This document shows, piece by piece, positions 4,263 to 24,473 of a stretch of 40,805 nucleotides of DNA. The stretch is taken from positions 1 to 40,805 of the forward strand of contig JAHBWH010000063.1 in the NCBI GenBank assembly GCA_019637115.1. The letters are read 5' to 3'. This DNA comes from Myxococcales bacterium (GTDB lineage Bacteria > Myxococcota_A > Polyangia > Polyangiales > Houyiibacteriaceae). A program made the position numbers and the translations under genes. Every line of letters starts with the position of its first letter. Position 1 is the first letter of the stretch. Below the pieces are notes generated by a model. It searched no databases, was not told the DNA's origin, and was given only the letters and a program-made list of their open reading frames with translations.

Positions 4263-5231
4263 TCAGAGCCGCTTGTCGATGATCGCGTTGCGCCGGAGCT
4301 CTTCGAGGAAGAGGCGCTCCTGCCGCTCCATCGCGCGACCCATCATGTCTTGGTAGAGCTGGTCGCGGACGTCCTCGAAGGGCGGCATCGAGTCTCCGCC
4401 GCGCTCACGGTCGTGCACCAAGAAGATGTGGAAGCCCGACGGTCCGCGGACGGGGCGGCTGATCTCGCCCGTCTGCATCGTGAGCAGGGTCTGCTCGAGC
4501 TCGCCGGGGAGGTCGCCCTGGCGGAGCCAGCCGAGCTCACCGCCCCCGTAGAGCGCGATACCGTCGGCGAAGTTCTCGCGGCTCAGCTCCTCGCGGATGC
4601 CCTCGGCCTCGCGACGCGCGCGCGCCACCTCGGTGGCGCCCGCGCCCTCGGGCACGGCCACGAAGATGTGCGAGGTCCGGAAGCGCAGCGAGCGGTTCGC
4701 GCGCGCCAGCCGCTGGTCGTACACCCGTCGGACGTCCGCCTCGGTGATGTTGACGCGGCCACGGACGCGCTCGTTCAGGAGCCGGTAGCGGAGGAGCTGG
4801 CGCCGCAGGTCGGCGCGGTACTGAGCCTCCGTGTAGCCCTGCTCAGCGACGACCTCCCAGAACTCGGAGAGCTCGAGGCCGTTCTGGCGGACGACGTTCA
4901 GCACGGCGCGCTCCACGTCCGCCGAGCTGATCCGGATCTGCTGGGTCTGCGCCGCTCGCTCCACGAGCTCCTCGTCGATGAGGCGCTCGAGGATCTCGTC
5001 GTAGAGCTGGCGGAGCGCCGCGAGCCGCTGGAGCTCGGGCACCTCCATCAGCCGCGGCATGAAGGGGACGGCGCGGCGGCGCAGCTCGCTCAGGAAGATC
5101 GCGTGGTCGTCGACCACGGCCACCACGCGCTCGACCACCTCGGCGCGGGTGGGCTCGGGGCGCGCGACCGCCAGCACGGCGACGGCGATCGACGCGCTCA
5201 GCGCGGCGGCGCGTGACGACGCGGGGCTCAT
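4263..5231 (-). CDS. SurA-like periplasmic peptidyl-prolyl isomerase/chaperone
   Basis: 322 residues with a signal peptide (cleavage after about residue 30, TRA), an alpha-helical SurA N-terminal-like region (about 33-180, beginning [19 protein letters not shown]), and one parvulin domain (about 180-285) with [20 protein letters not shown] and [10 protein letters not shown]. SurA of E. coli has two parvulin domains; this protein has one, as in many delta-proteobacterial forms. Role: folding of outer-membrane proteins in the periplasm. It overlaps the upstream PPIase gene by 4 bases (5228-5231), so the two foldases are translationally coupled. Confidence 0.9.
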
Positions 5232-6295
5232 CGCTCCTCCTCTTCGGCGTCAGCGGCCGCTCCTGCCCCCTCGGGCACCTCGAGCTCGTCGGCGGAGGTC
5301 GGCACCTCGGGGACTCCGGCGTGGCTCAGATCGATGCGCACGGCGGCGAGCGCGTCCTCGTTGGTGCGGATCTCCGCCTCTCGCCGCAGGCGCTCGACGA
5401 GCTCTTCGACCGCGCGCTCGCGTTTCTCGCGCCAGAGGCGGTTCTGGATCGCGCGGCGCGACTCCTCGAGCGAGCGGCTGAGGGCGGCGCGGCGGCCCGT
5501 GAGCTTCACGATGTGGAAGCCCGCGCTGGATCGGACGAGCTCGGGGTGGACCGCGCCGATGTCCTGGATCGTGAAGGCGGCCTCGGCGACCTCGCGCGGG
5601 ACCGGGGCCTCGTCCTCGCGGGTCCCGTCGCGTGAGAAGAATCGGAGATCTCCACGCCGGGAGCCGCGGCTCGTCTCGGGATCCTCGTCGTGGCGCTCGG
5701 CGAGCTGGCGGAAGCGCAGCATGTCCTCGGGGGCGCCGAGGATCTCGCGGAGCACCCGGCGGGCGGCCGCCTCGTCGCGCATCAGGATGTGGCTGGCGCG
5801 CACCTGCTCGGGCTTGTTGAACTCGTCCCGGTTGGCCTCGTAGTGGGCGCGGATCTCCTCGTCGGTGACGTCGGAGAGCTGGATGGCGTCCTCGATGCGC
5901 GTCTTGAGCATCTGCTGGATCATCAGCTGCTTGCGAGTGCGCTGGACCTCGGGGAGCTCGTGCAAGCCGCGGCGCTCGGCCTCTTGGGCGAGCAGCTCGA
6001 AGCGGATGAGGTTGTCGAGGAACTCTCGGCGCCGCTCGGGGCTGTTGTAGCGCGCGCGCAGGTAGGGCGACTGGTCCGCGAGGGCCTCGGCCAGCTCACC
6101 GACGGTGATCGTGGTGTCGCCGACCTTCGCCAGCGTCTGCGCGGCTTGCTCCCGCGTCAGGCCGTGGCGTGGCCACTCCCCGTCGTCGTCCGCGACGGGC
6201 GAGGTCGGCTCGTCCTTCGAGCCGCAGCCGACCGCGGCGACGGTCGAGGCCAGAGCGCTCGAGGTGAGGCAGAGGATGGGGAGCCAGGGACGCAC
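5228..6295 (-). CDS. Parvulin-type peptidyl-prolyl isomerase lipoprotein
   Basis: 355 residues. The N-terminus is a signal sequence ending in AVGC, a lipobox near residue 24, so the protein is probably lipid-anchored. A helical chaperone region (about 50-160) precedes a parvulin domain (about 160-272: VRASHILMRDE, GDLRFFSRDGT, SSAGFHIVKLTGRR) and a helical C-terminal tail with an acidic end. It is the first gene of the minus-strand run and is followed at a 4-base overlap by the SurA-like gene. The start is a GTG at 6295 with no clear Shine-Dalgarno sequence before it. A redundant or specialised pair of foldases for outer-membrane or surface proteins is the likely role. Confidence 0.88.
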   Translation of the reverse strand: MRPWLPILCLTSSALASTVAAVGCGSKDEPTSPVADDDGEWPRHGLTREQAAQTLAKVGDTTITVGELAEALADQSPYLRARYNSPERRREFLDNLIRFELLAQEAERRGLHELPEVQRTRKQLMIQQMLKTRIEDAIQLSDVTDEEIRAHYEANRDEFNKPEQVRASHILMRDEAAARRVLREILGAPEDMLRFRQLAERHDEDPETSRGSRRGDLRFFSRDGTREDEAPVPREVAEAAFTIQDIGAVHPELVRSSAGFHIVKLTGRRAALSRSLEESRRAIQNRLWREKRERAVEELVERLRREAEIRTNEDALAAVRIDLSHAGVPEVPTSADELEVPEGAGAAADAEEEER

Positions 6296-10975: not shown

Positions 10976-11217
10976 CGTCCCGCCGCCGAGTTCGCCAAAC
11001 GAGGTCCGCCGAGCTGGTCCGGAGCCGCCGAACCCGGTCCGCCGGATCTGGCGAACCGGTCCGTCGTGACGTCCTCTCGCGCAGCCTCGCGGAGGGCGCG
11101 TCGGCCCCGAGACTATTTCGGCGGGACCAGGCCCCGACCGGGATATGCTCTCGGCGCTCGGCGGGCGAAGCCCGCGGTCGTCGAGGCTCGAACCGATCGA
11201 AGACTCCAGGACTCCGC
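10976..11217. other. Intergenic region with degenerate GGTCCG repeats and an inverted repeat
   Basis: Four GGTCCG elements lie at 11003, 11016, 11036 and 11058 within an imperfect repeat of GCCG/GAAC blocks. An 8-bp inverted pair, GTTCGCCA at 10990 and TGGCGAAC at 11049, flanks most of them. The remaining sequence up to the OmpA-like gene should carry its promoter, but no clear consensus was seen. AGG at 11208 is a weak ribosome binding site for the gene at 11218. Confidence 0.6.
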
Positions 11218-13017
11218 ATGACCCGCTTCGCACTCGCCTTCGCCTTCTCGCTGACGCTCGCGGCCCCCGCGCTGGCCCAGCGGACGACGCTCAACCGCTT
11301 CCGCGCGGCCGAGACCACGGACGACGCCTTCGGCCTGCGCCGACCCGAGGATCAGGGTCATCTGCGCGTCGGCGCGCAGCTCCACCTCGACTACGCGAGC
11401 GCGCCGCTCGTCTTCCGCGCCTCGGATGAGGACATCGGCGTCGTCGACCACCAGCTCATGGGGAACGTCGCCGTCTCCCTCGGTCTCATCGACCGCGCGA
11501 CGGTCTTCGTCGGCCTCCCCGTCAGCTTCGTCCTGACCGGCACCGACGAGGCGCTCGCGGGGATCACGCCGGCCAGCGGCCCTGGGCTCGGGGACGTTTA
11601 CCTTGGCGCGCGTTTTCGCATCTTCGGTGAGCGCGGCGACTTCTTCGGGCTCGCCGCGCAGCTCGCCATCACCCTGCCGACCGGCGGGGAGATGTATCGA
11701 GGGGATCGGCTCCCGACCGTCCACCCCGAGCTGCTCGCCGAGCTGCGGCCTGGGCTGCTCCGCTTCACGGTGAACGTCGGCGCGCGCATCCGGGAGCCCC
11801 AACAGGTCGCGGCCGACACGACGATCGGCAACGAGCTGACCTTCGGCGTCGGCCTGACCGCGCCGCTCTACGCGGACTTCCGAGACCCCTCGAAGGTCCG
11901 GCTCGATCTCCACGCGCAGATCTACGGCGCGAGCTCGTTCTCCGACTTCTTCGGCGAGAGCGTCACCGCGGTCGAGGCGCTCGGTGGCTTCAAGGTCCAC
12001 CTCCCGTCGGGCTTCGTGGTGGGCGCGGCGGGCGGCGCAGGCGTCGCCGCGGGCTTCGGGAGCCCGGCGGCGCGGGCCATCTTCACCTTCGGCTGGGCGC
12101 AGCCAATCGAGGTGCCGCCCGTGGCCGAGGAGGCGCCCGCCGACACCGACGGTGACGGCATCCCCGACGACCGCGACGCCTGCCCGTCCGAGGCCGAGGA
12201 TCTCGACGGCTTCGAGGACGCGGACGGATGCCCCGACCCGGACAATGACGGCGACGGCGTGCCCGACGCCGACGACCGCTGCCCGCTCGAGGCGGGGCCG
12301 GCCGAGAACGAGGGCTGCCCCGACAGCGACGCCGATGGCGACGGCGTGGTCGACCGCCTCGACGCCTGCGTCGACGAGCCCGAGGATCTCGACGGCTTCG
12401 AGGACGCGGACGGCTGCCCCGACCCGGACAACGACGGTGACGGCGTGCTCGACACGGACGACGCCTGCCCGACCGAGGCGGGCCCCGCGGAGAACCGCGG
12501 CTGCCCCGATCAGGACCGTGATGGCGACGGCGTCGTCGACCGCCTCGACAACTGCCCCGACGAGCCGGGGACCGCGGAGAACCAGGGCTGCGTGGCGCCG
12601 CAGCAGGTCCGCATCCAAGCGGGTCGCCTCGAGATCCTCGACAAGATCTTCTTCGCGACCAACCGCGACACGATCCAGCAGCGCTCCTTCCAGCTCCTCG
12701 ACAACGTCGCGCGGGTGCTGAACGCGCACCCCGAGATCACACACGTCCGGGTCGAGGGGCACTCGGACGACACGGGGAGCGCCGAGCGCAACCTCGACCT
12801 CAGCCAGCGCCGCGCCGAGGCGGTCGTCCGGCATCTCGTGCAGCGCGGTCAGGTCGCGGCCGAGCGGCTCTCGGCGCGCGGCTACGGTCCGTCGCGGCCG
12901 CTCACCAGCAACGACACCCCGGCGGGCCGCGCGGAGAACCGCCGCGTCGAGTTCCGGATCACGGACGGCGCCGAGGCGGAGGATGCGTCGACGGAGGCGG
13001 ACGCGCCGCAGGAGTGA
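11218..13017 (+). CDS. OmpA-family outer-membrane protein with thrombospondin type 3 repeats
   Basis: 599 residues. Signal peptide 1-21 (ALAQ), then a beta-strand-rich region (about 25-300) that looks like a membrane barrel (transporter/porin style: LGDVYLGARFRIFG, AAQLAITLPTGGEMY). Next come Ca-binding type 3 repeats (about 305-465; DTDGDGIPDDRDACP, DNDGDGVPDADDRCP and so on, with long acidic Asp runs), and an OmpA C-terminal peptidoglycan-binding domain (about 475-590; IFFATNRDTI, VEGHSDDTGSAERNLDLSQRRAEAV, ENRRVEFRI). It anchors the outer membrane to the cell wall. Cysteines in the repeats may form disulfides. The start ATG at 11218 fits the signal peptide; the frame is open upstream but has no signal there. 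Confidence 0.92.
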   Translation: MTRFALAFAFSLTLAAPALAQRTTLNRFRAAETTDDAFGLRRPEDQGHLRVGAQLHLDYASAPLVFRASDEDIGVVDHQLMGNVAVSLGLIDRATVFVGLPVSFVLTGTDEALAGITPASGPGLGDVYLGARFRIFGERGDFFGLAAQLAITLPTGGEMYRGDRLPTVHPELLAELRPGLLRFTVNVGARIREPQQVAADTTIGNELTFGVGLTAPLYADFRDPSKVRLDLHAQIYGASSFSDFFGESVTAVEALGGFKVHLPSGFVVGAAGGAGVAAGFGSPAARAIFTFGWAQPIEVPPVAEEAPADTDGDGIPDDRDACPSEAEDLDGFEDADGCPDPDNDGDGVPDADDRCPLEAGPAENEGCPDSDADGDGVVDRLDACVDEPEDLDGFEDADGCPDPDNDGDGVLDTDDACPTEAGPAENRGCPDQDRDGDGVVDRLDNCPDEPGTAENQGCVAPQQVRIQAGRLEILDKIFFATNRDTIQQRSFQLLDNVARVLNAHPEITHVRVEGHSDDTGSAERNLDLSQRRAEAVVRHLVQRGQVAAERLSARGYGPSRPLTSNDTPAGRAENRRVEFRITDGAEAEDASTEADAPQE

Positions 13018-16050: not shown

Positions 16051-16119
16051 GGCCCGGGGCTACCACCGAGGCCCCCTCGCTTCAACGTGGCGGCTCTCCT
16101 GCCCTCGGCGGCGGGGCCC

Positions 16120-16191
16120 GAGCTCCTGGCGCGGGCCGAGCTCCTAGCGCGGGCCGAGCTCCTGGCGCGGGCCGAGCTCCTGACGCGGGCT
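16120..16191. repeat. 18-bp tandem repeat, four units
   Basis: Unit GAGCTCCTGGCGCGGGCC starts at 16120, 16138, 16156 and 16174, with single-base variants (CTAGCG in the second, CTGACG in the fourth). A shortened copy continues to about 16207. It lies upstream of both divergent genes. Confidence 0.95.
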
Positions 16192-16231: not shown

Positions 16232-16297
16232 ACTCGGTCGAAAAAAGATCGTGGGCGCCGGTCACGAATCGGGCCGACGTGGGCACAGGGGGTTGTG

Positions 16298-16876
16298 ATG
16301 GCGATCCAGACACAGGTCGCGCCGACGGGGGAGGGCTCGCCCGATCCGATCGCGGCGCTCATCGCGGCGGGGCGGCATCGCGACGCGCTCGTCGAGTGCA
16401 CCCGCCGCCACGCGGCCTCGCTCGGCCGGCTCTGCTTCGCCCTGCTCGGGGACCAGGCCGAGGCCGAAGAGGTGCTGCAAGAGAGCCTCGTCGCCGCGTT
16501 CCACGCGATGCCCGGCTATCGCGCGGAGGGCAGCGTGGCCGCGTGGTTGCACGGGATCGCCAGGAGGCAGTGCGCCCGGCGGCTCGTGACCCGGGTCCGC
16601 CGCGAGCGGCGCCTACGCCTCGTCCACGACGCCGACGCCGCGGGCGCGCCGCTGCCGGACGAAGAGCTCGAGCGACGCCGCCGCGGCGAGCGCGTCCGCG
16701 CCGCGCTCGAGGAGCTCAAGCCCTCGGACCGGGAGGCGCTCCTGCTCCGATTCGAGTCTGGTCTCTCCTTCGCCGAGATCGCCGCGCTCCAGAGCCTCGA
16801 CGAGGCCACCGCCCGAAAGCGCGCGAGCCGCGCGCTCGCCCGACTCCGCACGCTCCTGACCGAGGTGGACCGATGA
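16298..16876 (+). CDS. ECF-type RNA polymerase sigma factor
   Basis: 192 residues, the length of an extracytoplasmic-function sigma factor. Region 2 (about 38-95): LCFALLGDQAEAEEVLQESLVAAF and VAAWLHGIARRQCARRL. Region 4 (about 128-188): RAALEELKPSDREALLLRFESGLSFAEIAALQSLDEATARKRASRALARLR, a helix-turn-helix that binds the -35 element. The ATG at 16298 has AGGGGG just upstream. The stop overlaps the start of the next gene by 4 bases (16873-16876), so the sigma factor and its presumed membrane regulator are translationally coupled. Confidence 0.93.
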   Translation: MAIQTQVAPTGEGSPDPIAALIAAGRHRDALVECTRRHAASLGRLCFALLGDQAEAEEVLQESLVAAFHAMPGYRAEGSVAAWLHGIARRQCARRLVTRVRRERRLRLVHDADAAGAPLPDEELERRRRGERVRAALEELKPSDREALLLRFESGLSFAEIAALQSLDEATARKRASRALARLRTLLTEVDR

Positions 16877-19800
16877 CCCCCGAACAGAACGAAGCCTTCC
16901 TCGACGATCTCAGCCGGCTCGTCGATGGCGACCCGGACGCCCTCGCCCGCTGGGCCGACGTGCTCGCGGACGACGACGGCGCTCGTGATCTGCTCCACGA
17001 GGCGCGCCAGGCAGCGACCTTCGTCCGCGACGCGGGCGCTGAGTTCGTCCTCCCGGCGGACCTCGAGGCGCGCGTGCTCGCGGCCGTGGGCGCGAGTGGG
17101 GCCGACGGCGCGTCCGTGACGGGGCCTCCGGAGGGCGCGTCCGTGACTGGGGCGGACGGTGCGTCCATGACGGGGCCGGTCGTCGCGGACAGCGGCGCGC
17201 CCGTCCCGAAGCCGTGGGCCGGCGCGGACGGCGCCGGTGAGGGGCTCGGAGCCCCGAGCGCGGCGTCGGACGTGAGCTTCGCGGCGCCCCCGACCGCGCC
17301 GGGATCCTCTCCTGGCGCGAGCGGGGCGACGCCCCCGACGAACGCCCACGACGCCGGTTGGGCGGCGTCGACGCCCGCGATCCCCACCGAGCACGCGCGA
17401 TGGGCTGGCGGAGGGGTGGCCGCCCATCCGCCCGCGCCCAACGGGTCGGCGTCCACGGGGACGCGGTCCACCGGGGCGCAGGCCAGCGCCGGCAAGGACG
17501 TGGGGAACGGCGTGGCGGTGCCGCTGAAGTCCCCGTCGCGCTTCGCCCGCTTCGCGGTCGCCGCCGCGGCGCTCGCGCTCATCGCCGGTGGCGTGACCTA
17601 CGTCGCCCTCGACACCACCAAGCCCGCGGGCGTCTCGGAGCCCCGGGCCGTGGCCTTCGAGGCTCGGGTCGACGCCATCGCGACGTCGGTGGGCGGGAGC
17701 GGGCTGACCTTCGTCTCCGCGCAAGGTGAGCGCCCCGCGACGGAGGGCGAGACGCTCACGGGGGCGCGTCTGCGCACGGACGCGCGGACGCGAGCGCGGC
17801 TCGTGCTCGGCGACGGCAGCGTCGTCACCGTGCAGCAGGGCAGCGAGCTCGCGATGGGCGCGGGTCGGCTCGTGGAGCTGAGCCGCGGCGAGGCGCTCTT
17901 CGACGTGGCGAGCGTCCCGGGCGTGGCGCCCTTCGAGGTGAGCACGCCGGCTGGCCGCGTGGAGGTCATCGGCACGAAGTTCCTCGTCACCGTCGACGAC
18001 GCGGGCGGCGCGGTGCGCGTGCTGCGCGGCGAGGTGCGGGTGCACCCGCCGACCGGCGCGGCCGTGAGCCTGAAGGCGGGCCAAGAGGCGCTGCTGCGCG
18101 AGTCGGCGGCGCACGTCGTCAACGCGGTCGATCTCGCCGGCTCGGTCGCGTGGACCGAGCTCGAGGGAGAGCCCGAGGACGACCTGCCCATCGCGGGCCT
18201 CGGCGAGCTGCGCGCGCATCGGCCCGGCGAGCGAGAGGCGCAGGAGCGCCCGCTCACGCTCTCCGAGCACCGGGTGCAAGTGCGCATCGTCGGCAACGTC
18301 GCGCGCACCGAGATCGAGGAGGCCTTCCGCAACGAGAGCGGGGACACCCTGGAGGGCGTTTATCGCTTCCCGCTCCCCCCGGACGCGCGCATCGCGAGCC
18401 TCTCCCTCGAGGTCGACGGCCAGTGGGAGGAGGGCGCCTTCGTCGCCAAGGACCGCGCGGCGGCGATCTGGCGAGGGGTGATCCGCAACGCGACGCCGGA
18501 GTCGCAGCGTCGTCAGCAAGAGGAGTGGATCTGGGTGCCGGGCCCGTGGCGGGATCCCGCCCTCCTCGAGTGGCAGCAGGGCGGGCGCTTCGAGCTGCGG
18601 ATCTTCCCCATCGCCGCGCGCAGCGAGCGCCGCGTGCGCATCGCTTACGAGCAGACGCTCGCGCCGCACGGCGAGGGGCGCCGATACGTCTACCCGCTCG
18701 CGCACGCCAGCGACGACTCGACCCGCGTCGGTCACTTCGAGGTGGACGTGCGCATCGCGGGCGACGCGCAGGCGAACGCGCGGGGCTACGAGCTGGTGCC
18801 GCAGCCCGAGGACGGCGCCGAGCGGCTCCGATACGTGCGCGAGGACTTCAACCCGAGCGGCGACCTCATCATCGACTACCGCAGCCCGACCGATCGCGGC
18901 GAGCTCCGCCATTGGGCCTTCGTCGGCGACGCGGTCGCTCCGCCGCCCGAGCGCACGCGCGAGGCCGAGGCCGTGCTCCGTGAGCACCGCAACCTCGCGT
19001 CCGACGGCCGACCCTACGCGCTCTTCTCGCTGCGCCCGACGCTGCCCGGCGCCATCGAGAGCCGCCCACGCGACTACGTCGTCGTCGTCGACGCGAGCCA
19101 GAGCATGTTCGGCGAGCGCTACCAGCGCGCCGTGCGGCTCGTGCGCGGGATGGTCGGCGAGATGGACCGCCGCGACCGCGTGACGGCGCTCGCCTGCGAC
19201 GCGCTCGGCTGCCGAGCGCTGGCCGGTGACCCGCGGGTGCCCGGCGCGCACGCCGCCGAGCAGGTCGTCGAGCTGCTCGAGAAGGAGGAGCCCGCGGGCG
19301 CGTCGGATCTCACCTTCGCGATGCGGGAGGCCCTCGCCCACGCCGGCCGGGTCGGTGCGGGGCGCGAGCGCGAGCTGCAGATCGTCTACGTCGGCGACGG
19401 CGTCGCGACCGTGGGCCCGCGGCGGCCCTCCTCGCTCGCGGCCGAGGCGAGCGAGCTGCTCGGCGGGCGCGCGCGGCTGACGACGGTAGGGATCGGGCAG
19501 GAGGCCGACGCGGTCGCGCTCGCCGCGCTCGCGCGGGTCGGCGGTGGCCAATACGTGCCCTTCGTGCCGGGGCAGTCCACGGGCCAGGCGGCGCTCGCCG
19601 TCCTCGAGGCGACCTATGGCGTGCGCCTCGAGAAGGTGGAGCTCTCGTTCCCCGAAGGCGTCGTCGAGGTCGCGCCGCGCGAGCTGCCGACGCTCCGCGC
19701 GGGCCAGGAGCTGATGGTCGCCGCGCGCCTGTCGCGCGAGCAGGTCTCCGGTGAGGTCGTGCTGCGCGGCATGGTCGCGGGGCAGCGCTTCGAGCAGCGC

Positions 19801-21201
19801 TACCCGGTCGAGCTCTCGGCGTCGCGGAGCGCCGGCAACGCCTTCGTGCCCCGCCAATGGGCCGCCAAGACCATCGAGGCGCTCGAGCTCGCGGGCGACG
19901 GCGCCGACGTGCCGCGGCTCGTCGCGCTCTCGAAGGGCTACGGCGTGATGTCGCGCCACACGTCGCTCTTGGTGCTCGAGAGCGAGGCGATGTTCCGCGC
20001 GTTCGGGGTCGATCGTGGGCGCGCGAGCGTGCAGTGGACGGGCGAGGATCCGATGGAGTACGGCGAGTCCGAGGGGACGATCTCGGTCGAGCCGCAGCGC
20101 TCGCTCGCTGACTCGCTCCGGACTGGGGCTGGGGCTGGTCGGGCGGCGCGGGCCGAGGCGCCCGCCAGCGTCGGCTTCAGCATGGCCTCCCCGGCGATGC
20201 CCCAGGCGAACGCCCTCGACGAGGTGGCCTCGCGCGAGATGGCGCGTCGCGCGCCGCGGCCGCTGGGAGGTCAGTGGATGCGAAAGGTCTGGTTCCGCGA
20301 GGGCAGCGTCGCCCGGACCGACGCCGTCCGCGACCGCGACGTCGCGGCAGTGCGCGCGGCCGAAGAGCGTCTGCGCGGCGAGCCGAACAGCCGCGACCGA
20401 CACCGCGAGCTCGTGCGCGCGCTCAGCCGCGCGGGGGACGTCGCGCGCGCCGAGCAGGTCGCGCGGGACTGGCTCGCGCGCGACCGCCTCGACGCCGAGG
20501 CGCTCACGTACCTCTCGGACGTCGTCGGGCGCCAGGGACGCCGGGCCGAGGCGCTGCGCCTGCTCAGCGGGATCGTCGACCTCTCGCCGAACGAGGCCCG
20601 CTTTCAGGAGCGCTTGGCCGGCGCGTTCGAGCGCGCGGGCGACGCGGCGCGCGCCTGCGCCCATCGGGTCGCGCTCGCGGAGGGCAAGCCCGAGGACGTC
20701 GACGCGGTCGCCGCCGCGATGCGCTGCGAGCGCGGCCTCGGTCGAGACGCGGCGGCCGAGCGGCTCCTCGCGCTCGCGTCCTCGGAGCGGCGCGCGCAGG
20801 TCGCGAGCGCAGCGGCGCGGGCTCCGACCCCGGCCCCCATCCGTGGGGAGATCTTGCTCGAGGGGAGCTTCGGCGGCGCCGACGTCGACCTCTCGCTCGT
20901 CACGCCCGAGGGGACGCGCTTGAGCTGGATGGGCGGCCGCACCACCGTCGTCGGCGACGACGCGATGCGCCGCGGCGCCGAGCGCCTGGGCCTCCGCCGC
21001 GCGACGACGGGCAGCTACTACGTGGAGGTCTCGCGCGTCGACGGAGACCGGAGCCCGGTGCGCGGTCAGGTCGTGATCACCGCGCTCGGAACACGGCAGA
21101 CCGTGCCCTTCGAGCTCGTCGGCGAGCGCGCGACCCTGGCCCGCGTCGACGTGGTGCGCCGCTGGCGGATGGAGTCGGGGAGCGGGCCGCGACCGCGGTG
21201 A
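16873..21201 (+). CDS. Giant membrane protein: degenerate anti-sigma N-terminus, FecR, VIT, VWA, TPR and DUF2135-like domains
   Basis: 1442 residues. In order: a cytoplasmic N-terminus resembling an anti-sigma zinc-finger domain without Cys/His ligands (about 1-75; LSRLVDGDPDALARWADVLA); a low-complexity Gly/Ala/Pro linker (75-220); one membrane segment (about 226-246); a FecR-type domain (about 265-415; GDGSVVTVQQGS, FEVSTPAGRVEVIGTKF); a VIT domain (about 455-600; VRIVGNVARTEIEEAFRNES, GVYRFPLPP); a von Willebrand A domain (about 733-905) with an intact metal-binding DASQS at 740-744; tetratricopeptide-like helices (about 1155-1300); and a C-terminal YfaP/DUF2135-like beta domain (about 1325-1428). 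It probably sits in the inner membrane, binds the co-encoded sigma factor inside and senses or holds ligands outside. The fusion of FecR signalling to VIT/VWA adhesion modules is the striking point. Confidence 0.9.
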   Translation: MTPEQNEAFLDDLSRLVDGDPDALARWADVLADDDGARDLLHEARQAATFVRDAGAEFVLPADLEARVLAAVGASGADGASVTGPPEGASVTGADGASMTGPVVADSGAPVPKPWAGADGAGEGLGAPSAASDVSFAAPPTAPGSSPGASGATPPTNAHDAGWAASTPAIPTEHARWAGGGVAAHPPAPNGSASTGTRSTGAQASAGKDVGNGVAVPLKSPSRFARFAVAAAALALIAGGVTYVALDTTKPAGVSEPRAVAFEARVDAIATSVGGSGLTFVSAQGERPATEGETLTGARLRTDARTRARLVLGDGSVVTVQQGSELAMGAGRLVELSRGEALFDVASVPGVAPFEVSTPAGRVEVIGTKFLVTVDDAGGAVRVLRGEVRVHPPTGAAVSLKAGQEALLRESAAHVVNAVDLAGSVAWTELEGEPEDDLPIAGLGELRAHRPGEREAQERPLTLSEHRVQVRIVGNVARTEIEEAFRNESGDTLEGVYRFPLPPDARIASLSLEVDGQWEEGAFVAKDRAAAIWRGVIRNATPESQRRQQEEWIWVPGPWRDPALLEWQQGGRFELRIFPIAARSERRVRIAYEQTLAPHGEGRRYVYPLAHASDDSTRVGHFEVDVRIAGDAQANARGYELVPQPEDGAERLRYVREDFNPSGDLIIDYRSPTDRGELRHWAFVGDAVAPPPERTREAEAVLREHRNLASDGRPYALFSLRPTLPGAIESRPRDYVVVVDASQSMFGERYQRAVRLVRGMVGEMDRRDRVTALACDALGCRALAGDPRVPGAHAAEQVVELLEKEEPAGASDLTFAMREALAHAGRVGAGRERELQIVYVGDGVATVGPRRPSSLAAEASELLGGRARLTTVGIGQEADAVALAALARVGGGQYVPFVPGQSTGQAALAVLEATYGVRLEKVELSFPEGVVEVAPRELPTLRAGQELMVAARLSREQVSGEVVLRGMVAGQRFEQRYPVELSASRSAGNAFVPRQWAAKTIEALELAGDGADVPRLVALSKGYGVMSRHTSLLVLESEAMFRAFGVDRGRASVQWTGEDPMEYGESEGTISVEPQRSLADSLRTGAGAGRAARAEAPASVGFSMASPAMPQANALDEVASREMARRAPRPLGGQWMRKVWFREGSVARTDAVRDRDVAAVRAAEERLRGEPNSRDRHRELVRALSRAGDVARAEQVARDWLARDRLDAEALTYLSDVVGRQGRRAEALRLLSGIVDLSPNEARFQERLAGAFERAGDAARACAHRVALAEGKPEDVDAVAAAMRCERGLGRDAAAERLLALASSERRAQVASAAARAPTPAPIRGEILLEGSFGGADVDLSLVTPEGTRLSWMGGRTTVVGDDAMRRGAERLGLRRATTGSYYVEVSRVDGDRSPVRGQVVITALGTRQTVPFELVGERATLARVDVVRRWRMESGSGPRPR

Positions 21202-24035: not shown

Positions 24036-24416
24036 TCAGTCGTCGCCCATGCCCTGCGGGACCACCTTGATGCGCTTGAAGCGTTTCAACATCACCTGGC
24101 CCGCGGGCGCGCCCTTGGCCTTGGAGACGTCGGCGGCGCGGCAGTAATGGACCTCGACACGTGGCGCGCCTCGCGCTTTCGAGTGCCACGCAGCGAGCTG
24201 CGCCGCGCGTTCGATCACATCACGCGGGGGCTCGGCGGCGGACTCGCCTCGAACGACCACGTGGCTGCCCGGCGTGCCGCCGCCGACGTGCAGCCAGAGG
24301 TCGCGGCCCTTGGCTACGCGGAACGTGAGGTAGTCGTTGTCCGAGGCGCTGCGCCCGACGAGGATCTCCCACCCGTCGAGCTCGATCGTTCGGTACGGCT
24401 TGCCCTTGCTGCTCAT
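24036..24416 (-). CDS. Stand-alone NFACT-R (DUF814) domain protein
   Basis: 126 residues consisting only of an NFACT-R domain: GWEILVGRSASDNDYLTFRVAKGRDLWLHVGG (about 15-45), PGSHVVVRG, AAWHSKARG, and a C-terminal VMLKRFKRIKVVP. In RqcH/Rqc2/NEMF this domain is the C-terminal part of a much larger ribosome-quality-control factor; here the fibronectin-binding, coiled-coil and HhH parts are absent. Stand-alone versions occur in bacteria and, as CCDC25/Jlp2, in eukaryotes; RNA or nucleic acid binding is suspected. The ATG at 24416 (MSSKGKPYR) was chosen over 24449 because conserved sequence begins immediately after. It lies 57 bases after the radical SAM gene on the same strand. Confidence 0.85.
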   Translation of the reverse strand: MSSKGKPYRTIELDGWEILVGRSASDNDYLTFRVAKGRDLWLHVGGGTPGSHVVVRGESAAEPPRDVIERAAQLAAWHSKARGAPRVEVHYCRAADVSKAKGAPAGQVMLKRFKRIKVVPQGMGDD

Positions 24417-24473
24417 CGAACGCGCACCCTCGCGTGGCAGCGAGCGCACCGCAAGTGAACGCGCGTTCGACCC

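What the first reader, a model, noticed from the sequence alone, without database searches (positions are those of the whole stretch)
16298..21201. ECF sigma factor coupled to a giant FecR-VIT-VWA-TPR-DUF2135 membrane protein
The sigma factor overlaps by 4 bases with a 1442-residue single-pass protein. Its FecR region normally senses envelope signals, while VIT and VWA (intact DASQS metal site) are adhesion modules known from animal extracellular proteins. Together with TPR and a YfaP-like end, this would be one polypeptide that binds something outside and controls transcription inside: a contact or matrix-sensing switch.
Basis: partly seen in the sequence, partly recalled or inferred. Interest (0 to 1): 0.65.

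Follow-up and report, generated by a model that had tools for sequence, protein, structure and literature searches.

The report
Self-regulated sigma factor with giant periplasmic sensor
A myxobacterial gene pair encodes a transcription switch and the very large membrane protein predicted to hold it off, whose outward-facing part has the fold of an animal blood-plasma protein; the pair is conserved across many Myxococcota genomes and seems mainly to control its own production.

Summary
An ECF sigma gene (16298-16876) overlaps by ATGA a 1442-residue, single-pass protein (16873-21201). Its order is: anti-sigma domain, disordered linker, TM, FecR, VIT, VWA with MIDAS, TPR, DUF2135-like end. All 32 sampled Myxococcota loci that carry the anti-sigma domain have the sigma gene directly upstream. 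Of 18 related ectodomain proteins lacking that domain, one has any ECF sigma directly upstream, a distant one; nearly all 18 are lipobox lipoproteins. Two independent losses of the domain coincide with loss of the adjacent sigma. Sixteen of 31 aligned orthologues keep the zinc anti-sigma motif, and the N-terminal model resembles RsiW. The ectodomain model resembles human ITIH1 and the PupR FecR domain. New here: a fixed-spacing promoter motif (GGTCACGAA-N15-CAC) precedes the sigma gene in about 27 of 30 loci and is essentially unique in the focal genome, suggesting autoregulation with a very small regulon. 'Contact or matrix sensing' is not shown: the ectodomain is anchored in the inner membrane, so most likely periplasmic, and its ligand is unknown.

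The parts
16260..16286 (+). conserved two-box promoter-like motif GGTCACGAATCGGGCCGACGTGGGCAC, 38 nt from its first base to the sigma ATG
   Evidence: present with fixed spacing in about 27/30 orthologous loci; best site of this genome by a wide margin
16298..16876 (+). ECF sigma factor, 192 aa (regions 2 and 4)
   Evidence: orthologues in more than 30 loci
16873..21201 (+). 1442-aa single-pass anti-sigma/sensor protein
16873..17088 (+). anti-sigma domain, residues 1-72, zinc ligands lost in this lineage
   Evidence: dN/dS 0.36
17089..17532 (+). Ala/Gly/Pro/Ser-rich cytoplasmic linker, residues 73-220, near-neutral
   Evidence: (dN/dS 0.94)
17554..17610 (+). single transmembrane helix, residues 228-246, N-in/C-out
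17767..18039 (+). FecR domain, residues 299-389
   Evidence: structural match to PupR CSS domain 6ovk_R
18259..18648 (+). VIT domain, residues 463-592; the most conserved region
   Evidence: ITIH1 match
19078..19554 (+). VWA domain, residues 736-894
19090..19104 (+). MIDAS motif DASQS, residues 740-744 (with S811, D842)
   Evidence: complete in 29/31 orthologues
19195..19212 (+). invariant Cys pair C775/C780 in the VWA, opposite each other in a predicted hairpin
   Evidence: 31/31 orthologues
20332..20817 (+). TPR-like helical repeats, residues 1154-1315
20851..21177 (+). C-terminal beta-sandwich resembling DUF2135/YfaP, residues 1327-1435

Best explanation
[quoted passage not shown] Residues 1-72 hold the sigma factor in the cytoplasm. 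A single helix crosses the inner membrane, and about 1190 residues (FecR, an ITIH-like VIT-VWA unit, TPR and a DUF2135-like end) read the periplasm. When the ectodomain is engaged or damaged, the sigma factor is released, most likely by stepwise proteolysis of the membrane protein as for FecR/RseA, and transcribes its own operon from the GGTCACGAA-N15-CAC promoter. In some species it also transcribes one exported protein. Because sensor and sigma come from one operon, activation rebuilds the sensor and gives negative feedback. Supported by computation: operon, domain identities, topology, co-inheritance of anti-sigma domain and sigma, and the conserved promoter motif. Inferred: binding, release by proteolysis, the signal, and transcription from the motif by this sigma.
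For: Same gene pair in 33 loci, most with junctions of -4 to +4 bp. Anti-sigma HMM and sigma HMM hit the same 32 loci; 18 domain-less relatives have one distant adjacent ECF (L101), Fisher p about 2e-12, not corrected for phylogeny. The sigma clade is absent genome-wide (E<=1e-20) in all 10 tested genomes that have only domain-less forms, including G061 where the domain was lost. The tree places both domain-less exceptions L048 and L098 inside the anti-sigma clade. Zinc motif C..HxxxCxxC in 16/31 orthologues and zf-HC2 Pfam hits in 3. Anti-sigma model pLDDT 94; RsiW (5wuq_C) Z 5.3, 68 of 70 aligned. Ectodomain model: ITIH1 E 2.9e-22, PupR FecR 2.8e-5. Relatives are lipoproteins, so the ectodomain is outside the cytoplasm. 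Promoter words TCACGAA 18/30 against 0.1 expected; fixed spacing.
Against: No contact between the anti-sigma domain and the sigma factor was computed. The focal domain has lost its zinc ligands, and plain Foldseek found no match at E<0.001; RsiW appeared only in the second-look alignment of four chains. FecR-type N-termini can activate rather than inhibit their sigma (PMC9249621), so the sign of regulation is uncertain. The promoter matrix was trained on the same loci. No signal, protease or ligand is identified.
Confidence: 0.8

Rival explanations
1. FecR-like activator: the N-terminus is needed for sigma activity (pro-sigma) rather than being a pure inhibitor, and the signal comes through an outer-membrane TonB-dependent transducer as in FecA-FecR-FecI.
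For: FecR domain present with PupR-like fold; type II topology like FecR; E. coli FecR N-terminus has pro-sigma activity after RseP cleavage (PMC8144685).
Against: No TonB-dependent receptor among the window genes scanned. No FecR C-terminal/STN Pfam domain; VIT-VWA takes its place. fecIR is not autoregulated (PMC9249621), whereas a conserved promoter motif lies in front of this operon. Zinc-type anti-sigma motif in half the orthologues.
Confidence: 0.15
2. Contact or matrix-sensing switch: the VIT-VWA part binds a surface or matrix ligand through the MIDAS metal site.
For: MIDAS residues kept in 29/31 orthologues; VWA matches ligand-binding animal VWAs.
Against: Anchored in the inner membrane; nothing indicates exposure beyond the outer membrane. 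Relatives that are lipoproteins often have altered MIDAS. Fold similarity does not give a ligand.
Confidence: 0.1
3. Mostly a periplasmic scaffold or trap protein whose own N-terminal domain merely sets its abundance; the sigma factor has no other important target.
For: In the focal genome no other site scores near the operon's own; ectodomain-only lipoprotein relatives exist without sigma, so the ectodomain has a job of its own.
Against: Four other genomes have one further good site each, always directly before an exported protein; sigma factors can use weaker promoters that the scan would miss.
Confidence: 0.3
4. Chance neighbours: the sigma gene and the large protein are unrelated in function.
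For: None beyond the absence of a direct binding test.
Against: 32/32 co-occurrence, two co-losses, conserved overlap and shared promoter.
Confidence: 0.02

Closest known systems
Class I (zinc-type) anti-sigma factors, e.g. RsiW-SigW of Bacillus subtilis, RseA
   Same: four-helix N-terminal domain, adjacent to its ECF sigma gene, followed by a single TM helix; H-x3-C-x2-C motif in half the orthologues; model aligns to RsiW over 68 residues
   Different: zinc ligands lost in the focal lineage; periplasmic part of about 1190 residues with FecR, VIT, VWA, TPR and DUF2135-like domains
FecR/PupR cell-surface-signalling regulators (FecI-FecR-FecA)
   Same: type II membrane topology, FecR domain right after the TM helix, cognate ECF upstream
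   Different: no TonB-dependent transducer nearby, no FecR C-terminal domain found, VIT-VWA follows FecR instead; operon preceded by its own conserved promoter motif whereas fecIR is not autoregulated
Leptospira LIC12757-LIC12756 (ECF sigma and FecR-like regulator)
   Same: ECF with membrane FecR-like protein having a cytoplasmic N-terminus and no known TonB-dependent transducer (PMC12155086)
   Different: the published regulator has a non-cytoplasmic part of residues 94-350 only
Inter-alpha-trypsin inhibitor heavy chains (ITIH1, 6fpy)
   Same: VIT-VWA unit: Foldseek E 2.9e-22; VIA-align Z 21.8 over 514 residues
   Different: 15-16% identity; membrane-anchored bacterial protein with anti-sigma, FecR, TPR and DUF2135-like parts
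Bacterial VIT-VWA proteins such as TIGR03788 (marine sortase target)
   Same: VIT followed by VWA; residues 712-1038 match the model
   Different: 112.9 bits against a cut-off of 551.65
YfaP / DUF2135
   Same: C-terminal 110 residues resemble it (hhalign E 2.9e-4, beta-sandwich model)
   Different: no Pfam hit; probability only 40%

Membership tests
Class I anti-sigma factor | N-terminal helical domain of about 70-100 residues | tested here: met
   AlphaFold2 model pLDDT 94, helices 3-17, 21-26, 28-33, 35-56, 64-79
Class I anti-sigma factor | fold like solved class I domains | tested here: inconclusive
   RsiW 5wuq_C Z 5.3, 68/70 aligned, but only 4 chains compared and no plain Foldseek hit
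Class I anti-sigma factor | encoded next to its ECF sigma gene | tested here: met
   32/32 loci with the domain
Class I anti-sigma factor | H-x3-C-x2-C zinc motif (optional: non-zinc members exist, PMC7406223) | tested here: not met
   absent in the focal protein (LADDDGAR), present in 16/31 orthologues; not obligatory for the class
Class I anti-sigma factor | binds sigma regions 2 and 4 | not testable with these tools
FecR-type regulator | FecR domain, periplasmic, type II membrane protein | tested here: met
   (31/31)
FecR-type regulator | FecR C-terminal (transducer-binding) domain | tested here: not met
   no such Pfam family in 31 members at E<=0.01
FecR-type regulator | adjacent TonB-dependent transducer | tested here: not met
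   none among the main window ORFs and L005 flanking ORFs scanned; a distant one was not sought
ITIH-like VIT-VWA proteins | VIT followed by VWA with MIDAS | tested here: met
ITIH-like VIT-VWA proteins | overall fold of the VIT-VWA unit | tested here: met
   6fpy top Foldseek hit E 2.9e-22; Z 21.8
DUF2135 (YfaP) | family profile match | tested here: inconclusive
   no Pfam hit; hhalign E 2.9e-4, P 40%
TPR | tandem helical repeats | tested here: met
   model helices 1154-1315; consensus-TPR structure matches; Pfam TPR_19 in 17/31 members at E<=0.01, below cut-off in the focal protein
TIGR03788 marine sortase target | score above family cut-off | tested here: not met
   112.9 against 551.65 bits

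The most novel reading that the evidence does not exclude
A self-replenishing periplasmic guard protein. The ITIH-like ectodomain, which in relatives stands alone as a lipoprotein, has been fused to an anti-sigma domain. Its engagement, consumption or cleavage then directly triggers resynthesis of itself through a dedicated sigma factor and a promoter found almost only at its own gene.
Probability: 0.3. Interest if true: 0.8.

Novelty: new variant of a known kind. Interest (0 to 1): 0.62.

Why it matters
It joins an ITIH-type VIT-VWA unit, best known from animal plasma proteins, to bacterial ECF signalling in one conserved polypeptide. It supplies a concrete promoter motif and natural gain/loss comparisons, so the sensor's target genes and signal can be tested directly. 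It also shows that a free-standing lipoprotein ectodomain and a sensor ectodomain can interchange, and offers a possible case of a sigma factor whose main job is to maintain its own sensor.

Tried and rejected
Whole-protein searches of many genomes failed for technical reasons; a 191-residue VIT query worked. The single genome-contig scan with one protein found only one relative, so it says little about distribution. Plain Foldseek of the anti-sigma model gave nothing significant. Classical ECF promoter patterns (GAAC/CGT types) were not clearly enriched upstream of the sigma genes. A large regulon was sought: one-mismatch matches are not clearly more numerous in sigma-bearing than in sigma-less genomes, so there is no evidence for one. 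Pfam gave no family for three of the four extra candidate targets; the fourth was not scanned. An ECF sigma next to one lipoprotein form (L101) is a distant one; the one near L048 is separated by another gene. Seven literature searches bearing on ECF sigma factors, FecR or VIT-VWA found no description of this architecture in the open library; subscription papers could not be read and the main ECF reclassification paper was not found. Modelling the sigma/anti-sigma complex was not possible. ECF group assignment was not testable.

Full report
What is there. The window is a whole contig (C395) of an 8.9-Mb assembly of 434 contigs. At 16298-16876 lies an ECF sigma gene (regions 2 and 4). Its stop codon overlaps by ATGA the start of a 1442-residue ORF ending at 21201. 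Pfam finds FecR, VIT and VWA above cut-off and TPR weakly. There is one transmembrane helix at 228-246 with positive charges on the N-terminal side. A long low-complexity linker separates residues 1-72 from the membrane.

A close relative (L005, Myxococcota MAG Prado145) has both genes with the same overlap: 83% identity for the sigma factor and 72-73% for the large protein. A divergent aminotransferase gene is conserved upstream. Rough dN/dS by region from this one pair is 0.36 for residues 1-72, 0.94 for the linker, 0.12 for VIT, 0.22 for VWA, 0.25 for TPR and 0.31 for the C-terminal domain. FecR is looser at 0.55. The proposed domains are thus under purifying selection and the linker is nearly free.

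Distribution. A VIT query found close homologues in several genera of the family, and in further genomes of the same order and phylum. In all 32 loci that carry the N-terminal domain, a sigma gene of one clade lies immediately upstream, mostly with a junction of -4 to +4 bp. Eighteen more distant or derived relatives lack the N-terminal domain. Nearly all of these begin with a signal peptide and lipobox cysteine. They include two neighbouring paralogues in the focal genome (C413). Only one of the 18 (L101) has an ECF sigma directly upstream, and it is a distant one. A tree of the VIT-VWA region puts two of the domain-less proteins inside the anti-sigma clade: L048 (now a lipoprotein) and L098 (TM kept, sister of L094, which shares degenerate MIDAS residues). 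The cognate sigma is absent from the whole genome of L098's host and from nine other tested genomes that have only domain-less forms. L048's host keeps a second, complete copy. Loss of the domain therefore goes with absence of the sigma factor.

Identity of the N-terminus. Sixteen of 31 orthologues carry C...H-x3-C-x2-C, the zinc anti-sigma motif. In the focal family the ligands are replaced (LADDDGAR) while the flanking R38-D39 stay. Zinc-less members of class I anti-sigma factors are known (PMC7406223). The model of residues 1-80 is a confident helical domain (pLDDT 94). The second-look aligner gave RsiW from the SigW-RsiW complex at Z 5.3 over 68 of 70 residues. That alone is modest, since only four chains were compared and plain Foldseek was not significant, but it agrees with the motif.

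The ectodomain. The model of residues 251-1442 has pLDDT 83 and pTM 0.79. Human ITIH1 is the best Foldseek match (E 2.9e-22), covering VIT, VWA and the part after it; the PupR signalling domain matches the FecR part at 1.9 A. MIDAS residues are complete in 29 of 31 orthologues. C775/C780 are invariant in 31 of 31 and predicted opposite each other in a hairpin, which suggests a disulfide. The C-terminal beta-sandwich resembles E. coli YfaP weakly. The lipoprotein relatives put this ectodomain outside the cytoplasm. In the focal protein it is tied to the inner membrane, so the periplasm is its likely place.

Upstream of the sigma gene in about 27 of 30 loci lies GGTCACGAA followed, at fixed distance, by CAC. 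TCACGAA occurs in 18 of 30 upstream regions against 0.1 expected in shuffles, although much of the surrounding intergenic DNA of window and L005 aligns poorly. Exact assignment of the -10 element and start site is open. In 744 kb of loci every strong match lies before the sigma gene, apart from sites fetched on purpose. In the focal genome the operon's own site scores 33.2 with flanks; on the 27-base core it scores 31.9 and the next best 21.5. Four other genomes have one further site each scoring 23-29, in every case directly before an exported protein (L129, L133, L137, L192). Sigma-less genomes show no comparable site before a gene among the loci fetched. The simplest reading is autoregulation plus few exported targets. 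This differs from fecIR, which is not autoregulated (PMC9249621).

Mechanism. I propose sequestration of the sigma factor by residues 1-72, an unknown periplasmic input through FecR-VIT-VWA-TPR-DUF2135, release probably by regulated proteolysis (as RseP cleaves FecR, PMC8144685), and transcription of the operon itself. Supported by computation: operon, domains, topology, co-inheritance and motif. Inferred: binding, sign of regulation, protease, signal and promoter use. 'Contact sensing' remains a guess.

Limits.

Noticed in passing
own genome C413: L002 880-5370 and L003 652-5088 (L038): Two neighbouring lipoprotein genes with FecR-VIT-VWA-TPR and a DUF2135-like end but no anti-sigma domain or sigma gene; MIDAS degenerate (DVSAG, DVSGA). 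Possible partners or competitors of the focal ectodomain.
   Followed up: partly
L129, L133, L137, L192 at about position 1500: Good copies of the sigma promoter motif directly before genes for exported proteins of unknown family: candidate targets in four other genomes.
   Followed up: partly
L101 643-1315 (oriented locus): A lipoprotein form of the ectodomain with a different, distant ECF sigma gene directly upstream.
   Followed up: partly
L094 and L098: Sister lineage with degenerate MIDAS; L098 has also lost the anti-sigma domain and the sigma gene, and evolves fast.
   Followed up: partly
window 16110-16190: 4.5 copies of an 18-base GC-rich tandem repeat between the divergent aminotransferase and sigma genes; the L005 intergenic region aligns poorly there.
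   Followed up: no
window 4263-6295, minus strand: Two overlapping genes for SurA-like peptidyl-prolyl isomerases.
   Followed up: no
window 11212-13017: OmpA-family protein with thrombospondin type 3 repeats.
   Followed up: no
window 24036-24449, minus strand: A short gene for a free-standing NFACT RNA-binding domain.
   Followed up: no
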